Assembly (NCBI GenBank): GCA_002469915.1
Contig: DKOG01000237.1
Span: 1 to 16,060, forward strand
DNA from: Bacteroidetes bacterium UBA7368
GTDB taxonomy: Bacteria > Bacteroidota > Rhodothermia > Rhodothermales > UBA10348
Reading direction: 5' to 3'
Length of the DNA: 16,060 nt
Positions 5,904 to 14,759 of this stretch are shown here, piece by piece; positions within the stretch are counted from its first letter, which is position 1; every line of letters begins with the position of its first letter. The translations under genes were made by a program, and so were the position numbers. The notes beneath the pieces were generated by a model. It searched no databases and was not told the DNA's origin. It was given only the letters and a program-made list of their open reading frames with translations.

Positions 5904-6608
5904 CGTGTTTTCAAAGGAGTCGGAGCGAGAGGAAAGCGAATAGATGGTGATAATCTAGCCTCTCCCTTTTCGCTGCTTTCGGTTGACCAGAAATCACGAC
6001 TTGGCGGTCTTCGACTGAGTACTTCGCTGCAACTGGATCATGCGCCGGGGGTGAACACTTGGAACGTGAGCAGACTATACGTTCGAGCGAGCACTGAACT
6101 GACGGAAGCTATTTCAATCAATGGACGCTATGGTCAGCGGAAATATTTCAAATACTGGCTACCTGACAGCCGGTTTTCCAGTACAAAGGAGCAGCTTTCA
6201 GTAGGTATCCAGTTCAATCGCGCACCTCATTTTTTATCCGTCAGCCTGAGCTCTAATGCATATTCGGGGAGTGAAAGAAGCCACTCCTTCAACACTTCTT
6301 TTCGGACCCAACCTAAATGGCTCCCTTTTGCATTTCGTAACGCATCAAATATCTGGATGCGGGCCAACAATACAACCTATTACAACTCAAGCTCGTTTCA
6401 GCGAGAGGTCAAAGGTGTAATACTGGGTCTGGAGTACTCTTTGCTGGCCGTTGACATGGTCGGCCCCCGAACATTCTCGCATATTGCCGGCTTATCTGCC
6501 CGATTTTCCTTTAAGAAATGGGGGTATTTCTCCGTCCGAGAACGAACACATATCGGGTCCAGCCTGACCTCGTCTACGGTATACCTTAACTACGGAATAC
6601 GCTTTTGA
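5904..6608 (+). pseudogene. 5'-truncated outer-membrane beta-barrel protein
   Basis: The frame is open immediately after the sulfatase stop (TAA 5901-5903) and continues in that same frame to TGA at 6606-6608. The first in-frame usual start is a GTG at 6051, yet codons before it still read as protein: SPFSLLSVDQKSRLGGLRLS, then TSLQLDHAPGVNTWNVSRL. This continues smoothly into alternating amphipathic strands. The chain ends LNYGIRF, with the terminal aromatic residue of outer-membrane barrels. No signal peptide or N-terminal part exists. The best explanation is that the 5' part of a barrel gene was deleted and the junction lies at or just after the sulfatase stop; an assembly join could give the same picture. 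The stop overlaps the next gene's TTG start by 4 bp, so its original operon link survives on that side. The family is not recognised. Confidence 0.65.
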
Positions 6609-7927
6609 GTCCAACTCTGATCATATGGTTGGTCTTTGTCGTCTTAGCGTTCCTGTTTGTCGTTCCGTACGTACGCGAATTACTTAATCGAGAAAAGGAG
6701 GTTCTTGAAGCTCATGCTGAGTCACTTGAATACGGGCTTTATCGACCGGCCTCGTTGCATCCAGTGGTTAATCCCGATCAATGTATTGGCACAGGTAATT
6801 GCGTAGAGGCCTGCCCTGAAAAAGATGTTCTGGGCCTACTTTCAGGTCAAGCCACGCCCGTTTCACCGGCTCGTTGTATTGGTCACGGACTATGCGAACG
6901 CTCCTGCCCTGTGAACGCTATCGAGCTCGTATTTGGCACCTCACGGCGAGGAGTAGACTTACCACGCATCCAAGAAAACTTCGAAACTAACGTCCCGGGC
7001 CTATTTGTAGTTGGAGAGTTAGGCGGAATGGGCCTGATTAGAAACGCATTTGAACAAGGACGGCAATGCATCGAAGGCCTACAGCCTTCAAGCAAATCCG
7101 TAGATGTACTTGATGTACTCATTGTTGGATGCGGCCCGGCTGGTCTTTCCTGTGCTATCCAGGCTGTGCAAAAAGGACTAACGTACCGAGTTATCGAAAA
7201 GGATGGTGTGGGAGGTACCGTCCTTAATTACCCGAAGAAGAAGCTCGTCATGACTGAACCCATGAACTTACCCGGGACTTTTTCGATGACTAAACGGGAA
7301 TACGCAAAAGAAGAGTTGCTCACAATATGGCAGGGCCTAGTAAACGAGCTAAAGATTAATGTCAATGAAGAAGAAATCGTTCTGTCCGTGGATAAGCTGG
7401 CCTCAGGATACTTTTCTGTGCGCACCAATAAAGACAAATATGCAGCTCGAAACGTCGTATTGGCTATTGGGCGCCGAGGAATCCCGCGAAAGCTCCAAGT
7501 GCCTGGAGAAACCCGTTTTAAAGTCGCCTACGCCCTCAAAAACGCCGCTGATTTTGCCGGTGATAACGTACTCGTAGTTGGCGGTGGAGATTCAGCTGTT
7601 GAAGCAGCATTGGCTTTGAGTGAGCAGCCCAAAACACGGGTAATCTTGTCTTACCGGAAGGATGCCTTTTTTCGCATTAAGCCAGACAATCAATTTCGTC
7701 TAAATAAGGCCATCGAAAAGGACTTGATTCAGATACTTCTGAACACGAACGTTCTAGAAATAGATACCGATACCGTTACTCTTTCTCAGGAGAGGGAGCC
7801 CAACATCAGTCTACGCAATGACTTTGTCTTTATTTTTGCAGGAGGAACGCTACCAACTGACTTCCTAGCACAATGCGGAATCAAGATTGACACGGTTTTC
7901 GGAGCACGTTCACACTCGCCGAAATAG
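6605..7927 (+). CDS. Membrane-anchored ferredoxin-domain FAD/NAD(P) oxidoreductase
   Basis: The 440-aa protein starts at TTG 6605, overlapping the previous stop (TTGA). Residues 5-22 form one N-terminal membrane helix (LIIWLVFVVLAFLFVV). A two-cluster ferredoxin-like domain follows: Cys60-x5-Cys66-x3-Cys70-Pro and Cys91-x5-Cys97-x3-Cys101-Pro. A linker with NVPGLFVVGELGGMGL leads to a thioredoxin-reductase-like part with the FAD motif GCGPAG (175-180), the NAD(P) motif GGGDSA (326-331) and the FAD-contacting FAGGTLPTDF (411-420). The CxxC of thioredoxin reductase is missing, so electrons probably pass between NAD(P)H, FAD and the Fe-S clusters. The second cysteine of each ferredoxin motif is replaced, by Thr63 and His94. 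It stands upstream of the periplasmic cytochrome operon, suggesting but not proving that it feeds or drains that chain. Confidence 0.85.
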   Translation: MSPTLIIWLVFVVLAFLFVVPYVRELLNREKEVLEAHAESLEYGLYRPASLHPVVNPDQCIGTGNCVEACPEKDVLGLLSGQATPVSPARCIGHGLCERSCPVNAIELVFGTSRRGVDLPRIQENFETNVPGLFVVGELGGMGLIRNAFEQGRQCIEGLQPSSKSVDVLDVLIVGCGPAGLSCAIQAVQKGLTYRVIEKDGVGGTVLNYPKKKLVMTEPMNLPGTFSMTKREYAKEELLTIWQGLVNELKINVNEEEIVLSVDKLASGYFSVRTNKDKYAARNVVLAIGRRGIPRKLQVPGETRFKVAYALKNAADFAGDNVLVVGGGDSAVEAALALSEQPKTRVILSYRKDAFFRIKPDNQFRLNKAIEKDLIQILLNTNVLEIDTDTVTLSQEREPNISLRNDFVFIFAGGTLPTDFLAQCGIKIDTVFGARSHSPK

Positions 7928-8359
7928 TCTTTTACTGAACGTGAATGCCAGCCTATCACAGGAGCGTCCCAAGTGGAGAAACATGCCCCATCGAGCGTCT
8001 TTGAAGCAGTCCATTTGAGAATATTATTGTTCGGATTTGACTACAACCTCCTGTGACCCCAACCCCTTTTTTCTCATGCACTCATGATCTCAAAAAAAGC
8101 AATCAATAGCTCAAAAGTGCGTTTAATCATGTCTTGTATTGATTTTAAACCCTAATTCAGCACACAGCCTTTCTCAAAGAAGCAAAACCTTTCTCAAAGA
8201 AGCAAAACCTTTCTCAAAGAATCAAAACACAAGGACCATTCCATTGAATGCGGCCCAAAATTGGCAAGCGATCAGATAAAGGGAAACCAGAATCAGGTTT
8301 GGCGTATACGTCCTTCCGTGCAGCATCCCATCATTCTAGATTTTAAAACTGACTTAAAC
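7928..8359 (+). other. 432-bp gene-free region before the redox operon
   Basis: I see no convincing gene here. The region holds AT-rich stretches around 8090-8160 and a three-copy tandem repeat at 8168-8227, and should contain the promoter of the cytochrome operon. The frame of the following gene stays open back to a TTG at 8261, but that extension has no protein-like features and would bury the signal peptide. A canonical Bacteroidota promoter (TAnnTTTG) was not found by eye. Confidence 0.5.
8168..8227 (+). repeat. Three tandem copies of a 20-bp unit
   Basis: The unit CCTTTCTCAAAGAAGCAAAA is present at 8168-8187 and 8188-8207 without change, and at 8208-8227 with a single G-to-T change at 8222. 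The copies abut directly with no spacer, so this is not a CRISPR. It lies 133 bp upstream of the GTG start of the cytochrome-propeller gene. It could be a regulator-binding array (20 bp is close to two helical turns) or a product of slippage. Confidence 0.9.
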
Positions 8360-9769
8360 GTGAAAAGACTCATACCAATACTTTTCGTGGGTGCTATCCT
8401 CGCGGGTTGGTCGCTGCCCCAGCGCCAAGCTGACTGGAATGAGGTAGATGCCATTTTCCAAGCAAAATGTGTCTCTTGTCACGCAGGGGAAGAAGCCGCC
8501 AGGGGCTTGAGACTAGACTCGTGGGAGAATCTAGTACTGGGTTCTGACTTCGGAGAAGCCATTATTGCTTACGACGCTGACAACAGTCTAGTGATTGAAT
8601 TGGCCACTAAATTCTCAGAGGGCTCTCATCCCGAAGAATTGGGAGAGGCTGCCTTGACCGAAGAGGAAATAGCTGTACTTAGAGACTGGATAGACTCCGG
8701 CGCTCCATCATCTGACGGAGAAATCCCGTTCAGTAATCCAGACGATCCCCGTTTATATGTCGCCAACCAGGGAGCCGGCATGGTCGCGGTAATCGACATG
8801 AATACCAATCAAGTGGCCAGAATGGTCAACCTGATGGATCTCGGGTTTAGTGAGTTTAGCATGCCGCACCATATTGCCGTAGAAGAAGATGGATCATTCT
8901 GGTATGTTTCCCTGATCATGGATAACAAAATCCTGAAGTTCACGCGCGACAATGAGTTAGTGGGGCAGGTGGATGCCGTGCGCCCAGGTCTTTTGGCGCT
9001 AGATCCTGTGGGCCCTTGGCTATACGGTGGTCGTTCAATGATGTCTGTCTCGCCTCCCGAAAGTGTCGTACAGATAGATCGTGAGACCATGGAGTCGGAA
9101 GAAATCGGGCTTCTCATGCCACGCCCTCATGCGCTTCTCACGAACCATGATGGGTCGGAAGTCTACATATCCAGCCTTGCCCAAAATCGAGTGGCCACGT
9201 ATCACGATGAAACAGGGGACTTGGTGTTTGACGATGTGGAAGGAGATCGCCCCCATGTGTTCATTCACTTTACGATTTCGCCTGATGGCAAAACCATGGT
9301 GGGTACGTCAGAAGTGACATCGAATGCGTTTGTCTTTGATCTTGAATCAAGCGAGGGAATCGCCCTAGTAGATACCATCGGTGTGCTACGGGCACCTTGG
9401 CACCCGATTTATACGGCAGATGGAAAATGGGTCGTTTTTGGAAATAACTGGACCAATACCATCACGATTCTGGATATGGAGAAGCGTGCTATTGCTAAGG
9501 TGATTGAGGGAGTAGAAGGCTTAGCTCAACCCCACGGAAGTGCAGCTTCTCCCGATGGCCGATACGTCTATATCAGCCAAAGAAATCTTGCCATGCCTGA
9601 TGGCCATAGCAAGGAAGACCATGTTTATCATGCGCGATACGACTTTGGAGACAATGCCCATGTTGGTACCGTGGTTGTTCTTGATATGGAATCCATGGAG
9701 ATCGTCAAGGTCATTGAAACTGAAGAATATGCTTCCGGTATGGGAGCCGCCGTCATCCGAAACCGCTAA
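8360..9769 (+). CDS. Periplasmic c-type cytochrome fused to YVTN-like beta-propeller
   Basis: The start is GTG 8360, giving MKRLIPILFVGAILAGWSL, a Sec signal, and a 469-aa protein. Residues about 25-118 are a cytochrome c domain of the type seen in planctomycete cytochromes: FQAKCVSCH (heme attachment at Cys37, Cys40, His41), then LTEEEIAVLRDWIDSGAP. In relatives a Met in an MPP-like motif ligates the heme; here the same place reads SHPEE, so His90 may be the sixth ligand. From residue 127 to the end come propeller blades: LYVANQGAGMVAVIDMNTN, MPHHIAVEEDG, VYISSLAQNRVATY, FTISPDGKTMV, WVVFGNNWTNTITILDM, GSAASPDGRYVYISQ. The product should sit in the periplasm and transfer electrons. It is first in an operon with a cupredoxin-like protein 4 bp downstream and two diheme proteins. 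The substrate is unknown. The propeller fold recalls, without proving relation, the large subunits of amine dehydrogenases. Confidence 0.88.
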   Translation: MKRLIPILFVGAILAGWSLPQRQADWNEVDAIFQAKCVSCHAGEEAARGLRLDSWENLVLGSDFGEAIIAYDADNSLVIELATKFSEGSHPEELGEAALTEEEIAVLRDWIDSGAPSSDGEIPFSNPDDPRLYVANQGAGMVAVIDMNTNQVARMVNLMDLGFSEFSMPHHIAVEEDGSFWYVSLIMDNKILKFTRDNELVGQVDAVRPGLLALDPVGPWLYGGRSMMSVSPPESVVQIDRETMESEEIGLLMPRPHALLTNHDGSEVYISSLAQNRVATYHDETGDLVFDDVEGDRPHVFIHFTISPDGKTMVGTSEVTSNAFVFDLESSEGIALVDTIGVLRAPWHPIYTADGKWVVFGNNWTNTITILDMEKRAIAKVIEGVEGLAQPHGSAASPDGRYVYISQRNLAMPDGHSKEDHVYHARYDFGDNAHVGTVVVLDMESMEIVKVIETEEYASGMGAAVIRNR

Positions 9770-9773
9770 TTTC

Positions 9774-10511
9774 ATGAACCGCACTATTCTATTGTTACTC
9801 GTCGCCGGATTGCTTCTAACCGGAGTCGCGTCGGCTCAAGACTATCTCGAAGAGCCGATAGACAGTCCAGGGACGATTACAGGACGCGTTGTTCTAAACG
9901 GTGAAGCCCCGGCCCCATTGAAGCTTCTAATCACCAAAGACGTTGAAGTGTGCGGTCTAGGATATCGCGAACGTGTTGAAGTGGATGTAGATGAAAACAA
10001 CGGACTCAAAAACGTGGTCGTCTTCATTGAGGACGTACCGTTAGGTAAAGCGTGGTCTGAGGCATCTGTTGAGTCATCTATCAACCAGGAAACCTGTCGA
10101 TTCCAGCCTCACATCCAAGTCATGCGAAATGGCATCGATATTGATGTCATCAACAGTGATGAGACACTCCACAATATTCACGCGTATGAATTAATTGGGA
10201 GAGCAAGAAAAACATTGTTCAATATTAGCCAGCCCGAAATGGGACCCATAGCTGAGGTTATGGACCCAACACGCGGAAATCAGATTAGTCTGGAATGCGA
10301 TTCCCATGACTTTATGCAAGGATGGATTTTCGTAACCGACAATCCGTACGCAACTGTCGTGGATGAACACGGTATATACGAGCTTACTGATGTTCCGGCA
10401 GGCACCTATCAGGTTTCAGTCTGGCATCCCCGGCTAGGAATTCAAACCAAAGAATTAGTCGTCAATCACCACGATAGCACGGAATCCGACTTTGTTTTTG
10501 ACATCGAATAG
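9774..10511 (+). CDS. Amicyanin/plastocyanin-like copper protein with carboxypeptidase-regulatory-like tail
   Basis: ATG 9774, 4 bp after the previous stop, begins a Sec signal ending GVASAQ; the 245-aa product is periplasmic. The frame is open upstream to 9540, but that part overlaps the propeller gene. Residues about 35-190 look like a cupredoxin fold with a type 1 copper site: His133 in LHNIHAY, then Cys175, His178 and Met181 in LECDSHDFMQGW. The C-x2-H-x2-M spacing and the flanking HNxH and FMxG match the amicyanin pattern as I recall it. Cys60 and Cys108 may form a disulfide. Residues about 192-245 (ATVVDEHGIYELTDVPAGTY, then VSVWHP) are a carboxypeptidase-regulatory-like beta-sandwich. 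Such proteins are often labelled methylamine utilization protein. Amicyanin carries electrons from methylamine dehydrogenase to cytochrome c, so a carrier role between the neighbours is likely. No binding to copper is shown. Confidence 0.82.
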   Translation: MNRTILLLLVAGLLLTGVASAQDYLEEPIDSPGTITGRVVLNGEAPAPLKLLITKDVEVCGLGYRERVEVDVDENNGLKNVVVFIEDVPLGKAWSEASVESSINQETCRFQPHIQVMRNGIDIDVINSDETLHNIHAYELIGRARKTLFNISQPEMGPIAEVMDPTRGNQISLECDSHDFMQGWIFVTDNPYATVVDEHGIYELTDVPAGTYQVSVWHPRLGIQTKELVVNHHDSTESDFVFDIE

Positions 10512-11541
10512 AGGGAGAATCACGCATTGGTTCTGGGCTGTTCCCATGTTGCTCGTATTGCTTCTCGTGGCAAACGGCTGCAACCGTAGTCCGGACCCGA
10601 ATCCAGCGGCCGTTCTTGAACTCGGTACCTACCTATTTTTTGACGTGCGTCTCTCTGGAGATGGCAGCATCAGTTGTGCGACCTGCCACAAACCTGAATT
10701 TGGATACGGGGATGGTCAGGATCTTTCTGAAACCTACCCAGCATCAGATGGCTTTCGAAATACGCCTACCATCGTACATGCTTCAAGCTCGACTTCCTTT
10801 TATGCCGATGGAAGATTAAGCAATAGCACCCCTTCGGATGTCATCCTCGATATGATTGGTGGGAAGCTATTTCTAAATGTGCATGATGTCCTTTTAACCG
10901 AGCGCATGAAACAGATTCCTGTCTATGACAGCCTATTTTATGCCGCTTTTGGCTCGGAGCCGACGTTTGATCATTTGGTCACGGCACTCGAACACTTTCA
11001 GGCAAGTTTGACACCGAAAGATTCGCCGTATGAAACGGGTATGATGAGCGCATCCGCATTGCGCGGAGAAGCACTGTTTCAGGGATCGGCTGGATGTGCT
11101 TCATGCCATTCAGGACCCACATTCAGCGACGGACAGGCTCACGCTATCGGGGTGCCCAACAATGCGTCCATTGCCACAGACCCGCTACGCCTCTCCGCAC
11201 TCAGATTGTTTTTGAAAGAAAAGGGAGTGGATGACTTTATGACCATAGACTCAGACCCGGGTCGATATGTAGCAACCGGTGAGGAATCTGATTGGGGCGC
11301 TTTTATGACGCCTTCGTTGCGTCAAGTAGCCGATACGGCACCGTATATGCACAATGGATCATTAGGAACGCTTGAAGAGGTCGTCGCTTTTTACTCGGAT
11401 CGCGGCCCTGCTCTGTCAGAAACGGAACAATCTGATGTTGTTGAGTTTCTGAAGGCTCTTTCCGGGACGATTTCGGACGTCTTCGTTCCTGAAATGCCCG
11501 ATTATGCTGTGAGTCCTAACTGGTCAGAGGAGGCAAATTAA
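10492..11541 (+). CDS. MauG / cytochrome c peroxidase-type diheme lipoprotein (first copy)
   Basis: This protein of up to 349 aa has two c-type heme sites: CATCH (Cys62, Cys65, His66) and CASCH (Cys202, Cys205, His206). Family motifs are LFFDVRLSGDGSISCATCH, GEALFQGSAGCASCH, HAIGVPN and APYMHNGSLGTLEEVV. A lipobox LVANGC puts a lipidated cysteine at residue 30. The start is uncertain. TTG 10492 or 10498 gives a signal peptide with a basic N-region but overlaps the previous gene by up to 20 bp; ATG 10546 would leave no charged N-region. A purine-rich stretch (GAGGGAGAA, about 10511-10519) precedes no ordinary in-frame start. The family's FWDGR motif reads FYADGR here and the usual catalytic Glu region (NPVE-like) reads FLNVHD. 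These changes suggest electron transfer rather than peroxidase activity, which is inference. It lies directly upstream of the second diheme gene. Confidence 0.88.
   Translation: MFLTSNRGRITHWFWAVPMLLVLLLVANGCNRSPDPNPAAVLELGTYLFFDVRLSGDGSISCATCHKPEFGYGDGQDLSETYPASDGFRNTPTIVHASSSTSFYADGRLSNSTPSDVILDMIGGKLFLNVHDVLLTERMKQIPVYDSLFYAAFGSEPTFDHLVTALEHFQASLTPKDSPYETGMMSASALRGEALFQGSAGCASCHSGPTFSDGQAHAIGVPNNASIATDPLRLSALRLFLKEKGVDDFMTIDSDPGRYVATGEESDWGAFMTPSLRQVADTAPYMHNGSLGTLEEVVAFYSDRGPALSETEQSDVVEFLKALSGTISDVFVPEMPDYAVSPNWSEEAN
11528..11533 (+). promoter_or_regulatory. Strong Shine-Dalgarno AGGAGG for the second diheme gene
   Basis: AGGAGG sits 9 nt before the GTG at 11543, inside the last codons of the first diheme gene. 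It is by far the best ribosome-binding site seen in the window, where most genes have none, and it fixes the GTG as the start. Confidence 0.75.
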
Positions 11542-11542
11542 A

Positions 11543-12718
11543 GTGAACCGACTAGCCAAAATACCTTTCTTACCCGTCCTGATTGGACTGTTCTCAGTGG
11601 TGTTTGTGACCGCGACTGCTGCCACGTTTCAGATGGGCAATACCTTGGAAGCCCTTGGGCCTCCTCCCATCCCAGAAGACAACCTCCAATCTGTCGATGA
11701 AAACGGTATGCCGCTTCTCGACGATCCTAAAGTGGAACTCGGTAAGATGTTGTTTTTCGAGAATCGCCTTTCAGGAGATGCTAGCATCAGTTGTGCTGAC
11801 TGCCACAGCGATGACTTCGGCTTTTCGGACGGGCAAGATCTCTGCCGGGCTTACCAAGCCGCTGGAAACTGGCGAAATTGTCCTACTGTCGTGAATGCCG
11901 CCTACAAAGATGATTTGTTCTGGGATGGCCGCGCACCCCGGCTGGAAGATCAGGCCAAAGGAGCAGCCACGAGCGTCGTGGAAGGGCATGGAGATACAGG
12001 AATGATGGAAGAACGCCTTGCGTTGATTCCTAACTATGTAGATCGATTTAAAACGGTTTTCGGCACAGACCTCCCTCAGGAAGAAGATATCTGGAAGGCC
12101 ATCGCGGCTTTTGAGCGCACCATTGTTCAGATAGATACTCCCTTTGATCAGTTTATGATTGGTAATCTTGGAGCAATGACGGATGATGCTAAGGCTGGAA
12201 TGGCCTTGTTCATGGGTAAGGCTGCCTGCATTCAATGCCACATGGGGCCGCTCCTCTCCGATCAGCAATTCCATAATATTGGCGTTCCTGATAACGAGCT
12301 TTTCGCGACAGACCCACTCACTCAGGTCACCTTCCGATTTCAGCAAATCATGAACGAAGTGCCCGAGGATATCCGGGAGAAGGTCAAAACAGACCTTGGC
12401 CTCTACCTACAGACTAAAGATCCTGAGGATATGGGCAAATTCAGAACACCTTCCTTGAGATATTTGACATATTCAGCCCCTTACATGCATAACGGCGCTT
12501 TCTTTACGCTCGAAGAAGTGGTTGACTTCTACAATGACGGAGCGGGTGAAGACCAATTCGAAGCTTTAGGTGGTGTTCGAACCCGGTCCGACCTAGTGCG
12601 CCCGCTAAATCTGTCCGACGACGAAAAGCGGCAGCTAGTCGCTTTTTTAGAAAGTACGAGTGGTAAAGAAATTAAAGTCGATCAACCTGTTCTTCCTCCC
12701 TATGCGGATCTGAACTAG
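11543..12718 (+). CDS. MauG / cytochrome c peroxidase-type diheme protein (second copy)
   Basis: GTG 11543 starts a 391-aa protein with an N-terminal signal or anchor (MNRLAKIPFLPVLIGLFSVV, then ATAATF) and no lipobox. The heme sites are CADCH (Cys84, Cys87, His88) and CIQCH (Cys229, Cys232, His233). The family core is intact: LFFENRLSGDASISCADCH, LFWDGR with Trp127, LEDQAKG followed by VVEGHG with a candidate catalytic Glu147, FHNIGVPD and APYMHNGAFFTLEEVV. Members reduce hydrogen peroxide or oxidise a protein substrate, as MauG does when it forms the TTQ cofactor. Cys101 and Cys113, within about a dozen residues after heme site 1, could form a disulfide absent from the first copy. It follows the first diheme gene with 1 bp between stop and start. 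The two proteins are related but diverged, and may act as a pair. Confidence 0.92.
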   Translation: MNRLAKIPFLPVLIGLFSVVFVTATAATFQMGNTLEALGPPPIPEDNLQSVDENGMPLLDDPKVELGKMLFFENRLSGDASISCADCHSDDFGFSDGQDLCRAYQAAGNWRNCPTVVNAAYKDDLFWDGRAPRLEDQAKGAATSVVEGHGDTGMMEERLALIPNYVDRFKTVFGTDLPQEEDIWKAIAAFERTIVQIDTPFDQFMIGNLGAMTDDAKAGMALFMGKAACIQCHMGPLLSDQQFHNIGVPDNELFATDPLTQVTFRFQQIMNEVPEDIREKVKTDLGLYLQTKDPEDMGKFRTPSLRYLTYSAPYMHNGAFFTLEEVVDFYNDGAGEDQFEALGGVRTRSDLVRPLNLSDDEKRQLVAFLESTSGKEIKVDQPVLPPYADLN

Positions 12719-12722
12719 CCTA

Positions 12723-12743
12723 GCCCCCGACTGTAGGGGTTTT
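12723..12743 (+). terminator. Weak terminator candidate after the redox operon
   Basis: Four C (12725-12728) and four G (12736-12739) flank a 7-nt loop and are followed by TTTT. The stem is short and the T-run is broken by C, so the call is weak. Its place, 5 bp after the second diheme stop, is where a terminator is expected. Confidence 0.3.
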
Positions 12744-12788
12744 CCCGTTGTTTTTGCGCTTTCTTTTACGCACCTTCTTCAGCACTAA

Positions 12789-13757
12789 ATTATTTCAGAC
12801 AAATCTGACGGTACGACCCGAGACAACCGCGATCGAATGCGCATACGGGCCCGTTTCGGCTTGAATTATGCCCACTCCAACCGCGTGACCCTGGGAATGC
12901 GGATTCGTGCAGGGGATCCGGCTTCTATTCAGTCTCCTCACATTACGCTTGGAGATGGGCTTTCAACCAAACCGATAGCGCTGGACCGAGTGTTTGCTCG
13001 CGTGACCTTTGATGGTGGTTCGGTCTGGTTTGGAAAGAATAGTAATCCGTTTTGGCATCAGAATGAACTGTTCTGGGATGATGATGTCATGTTAGAAGGT
13101 GCCGCTGCAACGTTCCAATTGCATGATAAAGTGGAAGCTCGACTGGGTTATTTTGTATTAGATACCCCCTCGAGTAACGGCTTTGCGGATCAAGCCAAAA
13201 TGATGGGCGGGCAGCTTATCGCCTCCCAAGGTATGCTCACGGCTGCCCTTGGCATCCGGTCCATTCGAGAAAATCCAGAGGCAGCTGATCCCCGATTGTC
13301 AGATGTAGACTACACGTTGATTTCCGGCAATGTGTATGCAGACCTGAGGTTCAATGACCATCCCGTTCGAGTTGGCCTAGATATAATCTCCAATCTCGAG
13401 GACTACGACCAAACGATGTACAATCACGACCAGACCTCAGGATTTGTGGCAAGCGCCTTATATGGAAGCGCCAATAAAACCGGCGATTGGCAATTCAGAT
13501 ACTACTTCTCCTATATCCAGAAATATGCTGTAGTCGGAGCCTTTGCTCAAGATGATTGGGTACGCTGGGGGTCAGCTACATCGACTCGGTCGGGCAATTT
13601 CTGAGGGCACGAGGTACCTGCGGTGTATATACCCGGCGAAGGCCAAAACTTAGTTTTGCGTGCCTACCTAGTTGAAGCACTTGAGCTCGAAAGCACGGGT
13701 GCCAGCGCGCTAGAAACAGGGACTCGCTTCAGACTCGACTGGAATATTTCGTTCTAG
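12789..13757 (+). pseudogene. Porin-like outer-membrane protein, no start and one in-frame TGA
   Basis: The first ATG in frame is 12837, but codons from 12789 already read as family sequence (SDGTTRDNRDRMRIRARFGL). This matches the stretch that normally follows about 50 residues of signal peptide and first strand in Bacteroidota putative porins. The stop at 12786-12788 and the lack of any start upstream show the 5' end is gone. The barrel continues (VTLGMRIRAGDP, ITLGDGL, VWFGKNSNPFWHQNELFWDD, DDWVRWGSATSTRSGNF) to a TGA at 13602-13604. The same frame then goes on with protein-like sequence: GHEVPAVYIPGEGQNLVLRA, then YLVEALELE and FRLDWNISF, ending TAG 13755-13757 with the C-terminal Phe expected of a barrel. 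TGA for CGA (Arg) is a one-base change. The same TGA codon ends other genes here, so recoding is unlikely. Confidence 0.75.
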
Positions 13758-13796: not shown

Positions 13797-14759
13797 CTAC
13801 AGGGTAGGTGTTCCTTTATCTCGTATTCGATTGGTAGCAGCCACTAACTCTTTCGTAATCCCGGGTTCGTGAGATGAATGTCCTGCATCGGGCACAATGA
13901 CTAGACTTGATTCTGGCCACAGGGCATGTAAGTCCACGGCGCTCGCCACTGGGCACACGATATCATACCTACCGTGGACAATGAATGTGGGAATATGGCG
14001 GATCGTGTCCACTCGCTGCAAGAGCAAATCATCCGGATCCAGACGAACATTTCTGAAATAGTGTGCCTCCAATCGAGCCGTACACCAAGCCTTGTCTAAG
14101 TCGTGAAAAAAGGCTTCGAATTCAGGGTTAGGCAATAACGTACAGGAAGCGCCTTCATAAACACTCCAGATTCTGGCTGCTTCTCTCGCTTCGTCCCGAT
14201 CCTCGCTATGAAATTTCTTCCAGTACCCCTCTAAAAGATCGTCCCGGTCTTCCACGGGAAGGTGCTCTGAAAACACTTTCCACCGTTCTGGCTGAACCAG
14301 CCGCATTCCGTAAAGCCACCACTGAATTTCTTCATCCCTGAGCAGCCAGATGCCTCGGATAGTTAGTGTGCGACAGGATGAAGGACACTCCTGAGAATAG
14401 TACAGCGACAACGTACTTCCCCAAGATCCGCCGAACACGTGCCAGGTCTTGATTCCAAGCTCGGTCCGGAGTTGCTCAATGTCCCGAACCAGATCGTCAA
14501 TCGAGTTATTCTGCGTCTCTCCCTGAGGAGTAGACCGAACCGTTCCCCGTTGGTCAAATAGCACAATGCGAAAATAGGACGGATCAAAAAACCGCCGGTC
14601 GGTTTCGGTAGCGCCTGCACCCGGTCCTCCATGAATAAACAAGATGGGCTCGCCATCAGGATTTCCGCATTCTTCCCAATAGATAGTATGAATGTCATCG
14701 ACCGGCATCATGCCTGATTTATAGGGCTCGATCTCGGGATAGAAGTGTTGATTTGCCAT
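13797..14759 (-). CDS. pip: Prolyl aminopeptidase (proline iminopeptidase), S33 family
   Basis: This 320-aa alpha/beta-hydrolase should remove N-terminal proline from peptides in the cytoplasm; there is no signal peptide. Motifs in order are the oxyanion-hole HGGPGAG, RRFFDPSYFRIVLFDQRG, the nucleophile Ser in GGSWGSTLSLYYSQ, the family cap segment RGIWLLRDEEIQWW, AHYF, the acid in HGRYDIVCP and the catalytic His in AGHSSHEPG. Length is normal for the family. Two places differ from the usual sequence: DQRGTVRS where DQRGxGRS is common, and ECPSSCRTL where HPERV-like sequence is common. Substrate preference may therefore differ, but the triad is complete. The ATG 14759 start gives MANQHFYPEIEPY, a typical family N-terminus. 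It is convergent with the porin remnant. Confidence 0.9.
   Translation of the reverse strand: MANQHFYPEIEPYKSGMMPVDDIHTIYWEECGNPDGEPILFIHGGPGAGATETDRRFFDPSYFRIVLFDQRGTVRSTPQGETQNNSIDDLVRDIEQLRTELGIKTWHVFGGSWGSTLSLYYSQECPSSCRTLTIRGIWLLRDEEIQWWLYGMRLVQPERWKVFSEHLPVEDRDDLLEGYWKKFHSEDRDEAREAARIWSVYEGASCTLLPNPEFEAFFHDLDKAWCTARLEAHYFRNVRLDPDDLLLQRVDTIRHIPTFIVHGRYDIVCPVASAVDLHALWPESSLVIVPDAGHSSHEPGITKELVAATNRIRDKGTPTL

What the first reader, a model, noticed from the sequence alone, without database searches (positions are those of the whole stretch)
8360..12718. Compact periplasmic redox operon: cytochrome-propeller, amicyanin-like protein and two MauG-type dihemes
Four adjacent genes, spaced 4 bp apart, overlapping, or 1 bp apart, encode a heme-c domain fused to a YVTN-like propeller, a cupredoxin with amicyanin-like ligands and two diverged diheme proteins. 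Methylamine dehydrogenase systems use a propeller subunit, amicyanin and MauG, but here the small quinone-bearing subunit is not visible and the propeller carries its own heme. This may be an undescribed protein-oxidation or electron-transfer system, possibly with a substrate protein coded elsewhere. The functional link is inference.
Basis: partly seen in the sequence, partly recalled or inferred. Interest (0 to 1): 0.75.

Follow-up and report, generated by a model that had tools for sequence, protein, structure and literature searches.

The report
Iodate-island redox genes without the reductase
Four neighbouring genes for periplasmic electron-carrying proteins, two of them relatives of the accessory proteins of bacterial iodate respiration, sit here without the iodate-reducing enzyme itself, which offers a way to ask what those accessory proteins do.

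Summary
The four genes are real, intact and tightly packed: a heme-c/7-bladed propeller (PROP), a type-1-copper cupredoxin (CUP) and two diheme proteins. The methylamine-dehydrogenase reading does not hold. The dihemes group, in gene order, with IdrP2 and IdrP1, the diheme partners of iodate reductase islands (idrP2-P1-B-A), not with MauG, MbnH or five peroxidase rows. In a congeneric genome the same PROP-CUP-P2-P1 run is followed directly by idrB-idrA; in the window and in a third genome idrBA is missing there, and the window's adjacent porin is truncated. Close PROP and IdrP1 occur in the same 3 of 244 class genomes, close CUP in the same 3 of 11 searched. Of the 120 best IdrP1 hits, 116 lack the distal Glu that all 8 MauG/MbnH/peroxidase rows have; the Glu-bearing ones form one clade with the window's protein. 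PROP's six channel histidines are all present in 83 of 96 distinct sequences; a metal site is possible but untested. Best reading: an idr-derived periplasmic oxidant-reducing module without the reductase.

The parts
8360..9769 (+). PROP: signal peptide, heme c domain (CVSCH 37-41, H90) and 7-bladed propeller with highly conserved H170, H171, H257, H299, H348, H392
9774..10511 (+). CUP: type-1 copper cupredoxin (H133/H136, C175, H178, M181) joined to a transthyretin-like carboxypeptidase-regulatory domain
10492..11541 (+). MAUG1 = IdrP2-type diheme protein; lacks the Gln, Glu and inter-heme Trp found in the MauG/MbnH/CCP rows
11543..12718 (+). MAUG2 = IdrP1-type diheme protein; has the distal Glu (E147) that 116 of the 120 best hits lack
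12719..12794 (.). junction where the congener G233 has idrB and idrA (about 3.2 kb) and the start of the porin
12795..13754 (+). porin remnant: matches residues 62-381 of the G233 porin (57%), no start region, in-frame stop at 13602-13604
6605..7927 (+). FAD/2x[4Fe-4S] YpdA-like reductase, kept upstream in G233 (69%)
5937..6605 (+). C-terminal part (residues 376-598) of a protein that is 598 aa long in G233
8168..8228 (.). three 20-bp tandem repeats upstream of PROP
13797..14759 (-). alpha/beta hydrolase (proline iminopeptidase-like by eye; 80% in G233, 83% in G213): shared right border

Best explanation
The run is an iodate-reductase-island (idr) type operon without the reductase: heme-propeller, cupredoxin, IdrP2, IdrP1. 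SHOWN by sequence: the dihemes are IdrP2 and IdrP1 relatives in the idr gene order; in a congener the same run continues into idrB-idrA; at the window locus idrBA is absent and the flanking porin is truncated; the four frames are open in three genomes. INFERRED: the ancestor had PROP-CUP-idrP2-idrP1-idrB-idrA and the window lineage lost idrBA. INFERRED mechanism: the (probably bis-His) heme c of PROP and the type-1 copper of CUP pass electrons in the periplasm to IdrP1, whose distal Glu, unusual for IdrP1, lets it reduce peroxide or a related oxidant, while the window's IdrP2 (no Gln, Glu or Trp) acts as an electron relay. In G233 the same carriers would feed iodate reduction.
For: Tree of 21 dihemes: MAUG1 with the upstream, MAUG2 with the downstream diheme of the Azonexus, Thiothrix and Vibrio plasmid loci, joint clade 100/99; identities 36-40% (MAUG1 to P2) and 45-48% (MAUG2 to P1) against 29-37% to MauG, MbnH and CCP rows. 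G233: large and small subunit over the arsenite oxidase model cut-offs (439.8/359.05; 106.1/95.65 bits), the large one 54-56% to the three plasmid subunits beside tandem dihemes and at most 31% to the other 22 plasmid rows listed of 747 records, IdrA-side clade 100/100 apart from 5 AioA; IdrA motif CX2CX3CX70S and IdrB motif CXHX18CX2H as printed for strain DN11, TAT motif TRRSFL (SRRSFL in DN11) (PMC10149662 passages). Papers: idrA neighbourhoods hold idrABP1P2 and aioA ones lack the peroxidases (PMC8692401 passages); order idrP2,P1,B,A (PMC10989891 passages). Co-occurrence: IdrP1 ortholog in 3 of 244 class genomes, the same three that hold PROP at 76% or more and, of 11 genomes searched, CUP at 57% or more. 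PROP-CUP fusions P0013, P0014. Glu-bearing IdrP1 are one clade, 100/100, nested among Ala/Ser forms.
Against: I found no assay of any of these proteins; iodate is inferred from relatives. PROP beside idrA is seen in one genome only (G233 = L012: 1 of 244 class genomes; 1 of 80 propeller loci), so the PROP/CUP-idr link rests on one locus. Three idr-type plasmid loci show no PROP or CUP in about 9 kb around (one side only for Thiothrix). The window genome is 84.6% complete, so idrBA could lie elsewhere, though TIGR02693 found none in it or in G213. Loss against gain in G233 is parsimony. Synonymous sites are saturated, and the porin remnant shows the same pN far below pS as the four genes, so that test does not show present function. 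The Glu/idrBA link is 2 loci against 4, and Rhodobacteraceae S2214 has an Ala-form IdrP1 relative with no idrAB annotated in its 19 kb. MAUG1 is only slightly closer to P2 (36-40%) than to other dihemes (29-38%), and the P2 side has 91/97 support. That this Glu equals the catalytic Glu of MauG and peroxidases is alignment plus recall.
Confidence: 0.65

Rival explanations
1. PROP is the enzyme: a heme-fused propeller with a copper (or other metal) site made of its six channel histidines, working like nitrous oxide reductase or thiocyanate dehydrogenase, with CUP as its electron partner; the IdrP proteins are accessory. It may be true together with the best explanation.
Confidence: 0.3
2. The run is a decaying relic of an idr operon with no present function.
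For: Both flanks are eroded: a 598-aa gene cut to its C-terminal part, porin truncated with an in-frame stop, idrBA and a multiheme cytochrome gene absent. The window's MAUG1 has lost the inter-heme Trp kept in G213 and G233 and has the longest branch of its trio (0.66 against 0.44 and 0.41). The porin remnant has pN 0.284 and pS 0.87, like the four genes, so codon data do not separate live from recently dead.
Against: All four frames are open in three genomes although the porin next door is broken; the 90%-identity cluster of the MAUG2 protein has 24 member sequences on 7 contigs; seen from G233, CUP has changed equally in the window and G213 and PROP little more; the Glu clade holds five rows (two nearly identical) and looks like a shared innovation.
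Confidence: 0.2
3. A methylamine-dehydrogenase-like or MbnH-like system in which the dihemes oxidise a protein partner.
For: MauG/MbnH models are the best NCBIfam hits; the Tyr column is shared with MauG (120 of 120 hits); a cupredoxin is adjacent.
Against: Scores are under half of the MauG cut-off; the trees separate them from MauG and MbnH; 116 of 120 IdrP1 hits and 6 of 6 IdrP2 rows lack the Glu, though the window's own IdrP1 has it; a separate MbnH-like/MbnP pair exists in the genome.
Confidence: 0.05

Closest known systems
idrABP1P2 iodate reduction genomic island (Pseudomonas sp. SCT, Denitromonas sp. IR-12, Azoarcus sp. DN11)
   Same: tandem diheme genes matching idrP2 and idrP1 by tree and order; in G233 followed by idrB, idrA
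   Different: window lacks idrBA; adds a heme-propeller and a cupredoxin not found in about 9 kb around three idr-type plasmid loci; IdrP1 has the distal Glu
MauG / MbnH diheme enzymes
   Same: CCP_MauG domain family, Tyr in the column of the MauG Tyr ligand (ligand role recalled)
   Different: own clade; Asn where these have Asp (MHN against MHD) in all 120 hits; IdrP2 rows lack Glu and 5 of 6 lack Gln
Amicyanin / plastocyanin
   Same: cupredoxin fold; C-x2-H-x2-M loop as in amicyanin (loop spacing recalled)
   Different: joined to a transthyretin-like domain
Nitrous oxide reductase, thiocyanate dehydrogenase, lactonase-type propellers (PF10282)
   Same: 7-bladed fold; His at inner strand starts
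   Different: N-terminal heme c; 10-18% identity to the first two; no metal shown
Hydrazine synthase beta/gamma
   Same: weak propeller and diheme profile hits
   Different: 39 and 37.3 bits against cut-offs of 560 and 625

Membership tests
IdrP1/IdrP2 protein families | diheme protein grouping with idr-linked P1 or P2 | tested here: met
   100/99 joint clade; P2 side 91/97 (UFBoot under 95), P1 side 97/96; P2 side 100/93 and P1 side 98/91 in the 45-row tree. The reference rows are idr loci by gene order and similarity, not by assay.
idrABP1P2 iodate reductase operon | idrA and idrB next to idrP1-P2 | tested here: not met
   absent at the window locus and TIGR02693 not found in G000; met in G233
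idrABP1P2 iodate reductase operon | iodate reduction by the organism | not testable with these tools
   needs culture
MauG (TTQ biogenesis) | score over NCBIfam TIGR03791 cut-off | tested here: not met
   163.7 and 200.1 of 443.85 bits
MauG (TTQ biogenesis) | linked MADH small subunit mauA | not tested
   no profile search for mauA was made; I noticed no such gene among the ORFs
MbnH | score over TIGR04039 cut-off and adjacent MbnP | tested here: not met
   145.1 and 200.9 of 362.85 bits; the genome's MbnH-like gene beside an MbnP gene is itself under that cut-off (257.5), so the score alone is weak evidence; in the window the neighbours of the dihemes are CUP and a porin remnant
Ordinary bacterial cytochrome c peroxidase | grouping with CCP rows; Met ligand column | tested here: not met
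   tree with five CCP rows; Tyr in both, Met only in CCP_Mesorhiz
Type 1 copper cupredoxin | His, Cys, His, Met ligands on a cupredoxin fold | tested here: met
   invariants; copper itself not shown
L-NosZ (clade III N2O reductase) | score over NF052460 cut-off | tested here: not met
   60.4 of 700 bits
N2O reductase / thiocyanate dehydrogenase copper site | His cluster binding copper in the propeller channel | tested here: inconclusive
   six conserved His, fold similarity, no distances, no metal data
Hydrazine synthase | score over NF052340/NF052341 cut-offs | tested here: not met
   39 of 560 and 37.3 of 625 bits

The most novel reading that the evidence does not exclude
A distinct, reductase-free offshoot of the iodate island: a heme-fused propeller with a metal site of six histidines and its cupredoxin (fused in some relatives) drive an IdrP1 that has regained the peroxidase-type glutamate, forming a stand-alone periplasmic pathway for peroxide or hypohalite chemistry. 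The corollary is that most IdrP1 and the IdrP2 proteins examined, lacking that glutamate, may not be the hydrogen peroxide scavengers proposed in print.
Probability: 0.3. Interest if true: 0.75.

Novelty: new variant of a known kind. Interest (0 to 1): 0.6.

Why it matters
The role of IdrP1 and IdrP2 is called unclear in passages seen here (PMC10149662; PMC11445184); H2O2 detoxification is the proposal in passages of PMC8692401 and PMC12535851. A natural IdrP2-IdrP1 pair kept without the reductase, and a clade with a distal Glu beside many relatives without it, turns that question into a direct comparison of proteins. It also adds electron-carrier candidates (heme-propeller, cupredoxin) to an iodate-type locus outside Proteobacteria.

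Tried and rejected
MADH/MauG, MbnH, hydrazine synthase and ordinary CCP membership were tested and dropped. NosZ: hhalign of the propeller family against 12 NosZ found only local matches in shifted blade register; the genus has no TIGR04246 NosZ (0 of 6 genomes at 1e-50). L-NosZ in 395 phylum genomes: none at 1e-50, and no control rang, so this shows nothing. IdrA of G233 in 395 phylum genomes: none at 1e-100; G233, which holds the query, cannot have been among them, so there was no positive control. The early idea that the large subunit in G233 was arsenite oxidase was replaced by IdrA. Other propeller relatives: cluster 1 (FG-GAP-like by eye) is in 54 and cluster 2 (choice-of-anchor-B-like by eye) in 44 of the 81 loci; CUP was found in 5 and dihemes in 1 of the 80 fetched loci, many on short contigs. 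PDB sequence search with CUP gave nothing under E 0.4. PROP on plasmids: only distant propellers among the 20 of 43 records listed. The paper library holds no paper with Azonexus hydrophilus and iodate and none with at least three of idrA, iodate, Bacteroidota, Rhodotherm; a search pairing iodate reductase with cupredoxin, plastocyanin or propeller words listed 20 of 146 papers, none of those 20 with the term iodate reductase. Other calls with no further use here: 47, 48 (anammox paper passages), 88, 89. That Azonexus hydrophilus NCP973 reduces iodate is my recall; Vibrio sp. THAF190c and Thiothrix are called idr-type from gene order and similarity alone. The names and roles of MauG/CCP Glu, Tyr and Trp residues are recall.

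Full report
What is there. Four genes on the + strand, 8360-12718, are packed with gaps of 4 bp, -20 bp and 1 bp. PROP (469 aa) has a planctomycete-type heme c domain and a YVTN/lactonase-type propeller. CUP (245 aa) is a cupredoxin joined to a carboxypeptidase-regulatory, transthyretin-like domain. Pfam missed the cupredoxin, but the ligand residues are invariant in 28 aligned sequences and a confident model (mean pLDDT 90) matches amicyanin and plastocyanin. MAUG1 (349 aa) and MAUG2 (391 aa) are diheme proteins of the CCP_MauG family.

Which dihemes. Neither reaches the MauG or MbnH cut-off. The best plasmid relatives of MAUG2 are on four plasmids (46-49%), three of which (Vibrio sp. THAF190c, Azonexus hydrophilus NCP973, Thiothrix subterranea) carry two tandem dihemes followed by an arsenite-oxidase-type small and large subunit. 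The same four plasmids lead the list for MAUG1. MAUG1 is closer to the first of each tandem pair (40, 38, 36% for Vibrio, Azonexus, Thiothrix) than to the second (33, 35, 33%); MAUG2 is closer to the second (47, 48, 45% against 39, 39, 37%). A maximum-likelihood tree of 21 dihemes puts both in one clade with the idr-type pairs (100/99), MAUG1 on the P2 side (91/97, UFBoot under 95) and MAUG2 on the P1 side (97/96), away from MauG, two MbnH-type rows and five CCP rows. A 45-row tree repeats this (100/96; P2 side 100/93; P1 side 98/91), with long outgroup branches and only four outgroup rows.

The same run in other genomes. In 244 genomes of the class, an IdrP1 ortholog (E at most 1e-75) is found in 3: G000 (window), G233 (same genus) and G213 (other genus, same family). 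The same three hold PROP at 76% or more; 109 of the 244 hold some relative at 1e-60, none of the others shown above 50%. Among 11 genomes searched with CUP, 6 have a match and only these three have it at 57% or more. G233 has PROP-CUP-P2-P1 and then, on the same strand, a 185-aa Rieske protein, an 895-aa molybdopterin protein and a porin. The first two score over the cut-offs of the arsenite oxidase subunit models, but the large subunit is 54-56% identical to the three plasmid subunits beside tandem dihemes and at most 31% to the other 22 plasmid rows listed, among them NT-25 and Thermus. A tree of nine separates the two sets 100/100. None of the five AioA loci fetched lists a diheme peroxidase within 3 kb, in gene tables that are incomplete. 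Published passages agree: idrA neighbourhoods have idrABP1P2, aioA ones lack the peroxidases (PMC8692401), and the order is idrP2,P1,B,A (PMC10989891). G213 has CUP-P2-P1 at the start of one contig and PROP at the end of another.

What the window lacks. Between MAUG2 and the shared right border (13797-14759), G233 has idrB, idrA and a 381-aa porin. The window has 76 bases and a porin remnant that starts at residue 62 and has an in-frame stop. G213 shows neither idrBA nor porin there. TIGR02693 is found in 1 of 244 class genomes, G233, and not in G000 or G213; those two are about 84% complete. The left side is eroded too: a 598-aa gene is cut to its C-terminal part and a multiheme cytochrome gene of G233 is missing. 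Loss of idrBA in the window's lineage is the simpler reading, since P1 and P2 are linked to idrAB in the published survey, but gain in G233 is not excluded.

Is it alive. All four frames are open in all three genomes. Synonymous sites are saturated (pS 0.81-0.90) while pN is 0.13-0.38. This points to selection over the long span but not to present function: the broken porin gives the same picture (pN 0.284, pS 0.87). From G233, the window's dihemes are somewhat further than G213's (dN 0.529 against 0.431 for MAUG1, 0.334 against 0.292 for MAUG2); for CUP the two are equal (0.347) and for PROP 0.185 against 0.165. What speaks for life is that the four frames stayed open while both flanks broke, and the Glu clade below.

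The glutamate. At the column of MAUG2 E147, all 8 MauG, MbnH and CCP rows have Glu. Of the 120 best MAUG2 hits (own protein included; 6873 hits in all), 90 have Ala, 21 Ser, 5 Gly and 4 Glu. The 4 are the window's own protein, P0198, P0199 and P0200; G213 also has Glu (its protein is nearly that of P0199). G233, Azonexus, Vibrio and Thiothrix P1 have Ala. All six P2 rows lack Glu and five of six lack the Gln; the P2 of the window and of Vibrio also lack the Trp. The five Glu rows are one clade (100/100) nested among Ala/Ser rows. So the Glu is most simply a regained feature of a clade that, where the locus could be read (window, G213), lacks idrBA. This is 2 loci against 4 idr-linked ones, and Rhodobacteraceae S2214, with an Ala-form relative and no idrAB annotated in 19 kb, does not fit a simple rule. 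Azonexus and Thiothrix P1 have another Glu four residues earlier in the alignment, which could stand in.

How it most likely works. PROP and CUP are periplasmic one-electron carriers (heme c, type-1 copper) and IdrP1 is the oxidant-reducing enzyme; IdrP2 has a degenerate site and may relay electrons. With idrBA (G233) this would serve iodate respiration; without it, defence against peroxide or hypohalous oxidants, or respiration of such a compound, is possible. The gene identities are well supported; the chemistry is inference. What would be new is the reductase-free, Glu-bearing IdrP1 clade and the heme-propeller/cupredoxin partners, for which the searches found no report; iodate islands and IdrP proteins are known.

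Noticed in passing
IdrP1 family, P0197-P0316: 116 of the 120 best IdrP1-type hits lack the distal Glu that the 8 MauG/MbnH/CCP rows have, and all 120 have Asn in the MHN motif where those rows have D, S or A.
   Followed up: partly
L164:6458-8328: The window's genome carries a separate MbnH-like/MbnP pair next to a YtkA-domain protein and a protein that looks by eye like a TonB-dependent receptor.
   Followed up: partly
L023-L090 (clusters 1 and 2): Propellers with the conserved His, heme-less or with heme, stand beside a choice-of-anchor-B-like and an FG-GAP-like protein in many Balneolota, Rhodothermota and Gemmatimonadota loci; a separate unexplained trio (partner names by eye, no profile search).
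   Followed up: no
L170:7395-10347: Rhodobacteraceae S2214 plasmid: a c-type cytochrome with two CxxCH, a CUP relative (34%) and an IdrP1-like diheme in a row, with no idrAB annotated in the 19-kb stretch.
   Followed up: partly
window 8168-8228: Three tandem copies of a 20-bp unit (CCTTTCTCAAAGAAGCAAAA) upstream of PROP, possibly regulatory.
   Followed up: no
L180, L181: CUP relatives on two rhizobial plasmids lie between an SCO-family gene and a metallophosphoesterase, near hemA and cbb3-type oxidase genes.
   Followed up: no
window 10492-10600: MAUG1 has a lipobox-like Cys after its signal region; G213 has it too, G233 does not.
   Followed up: no
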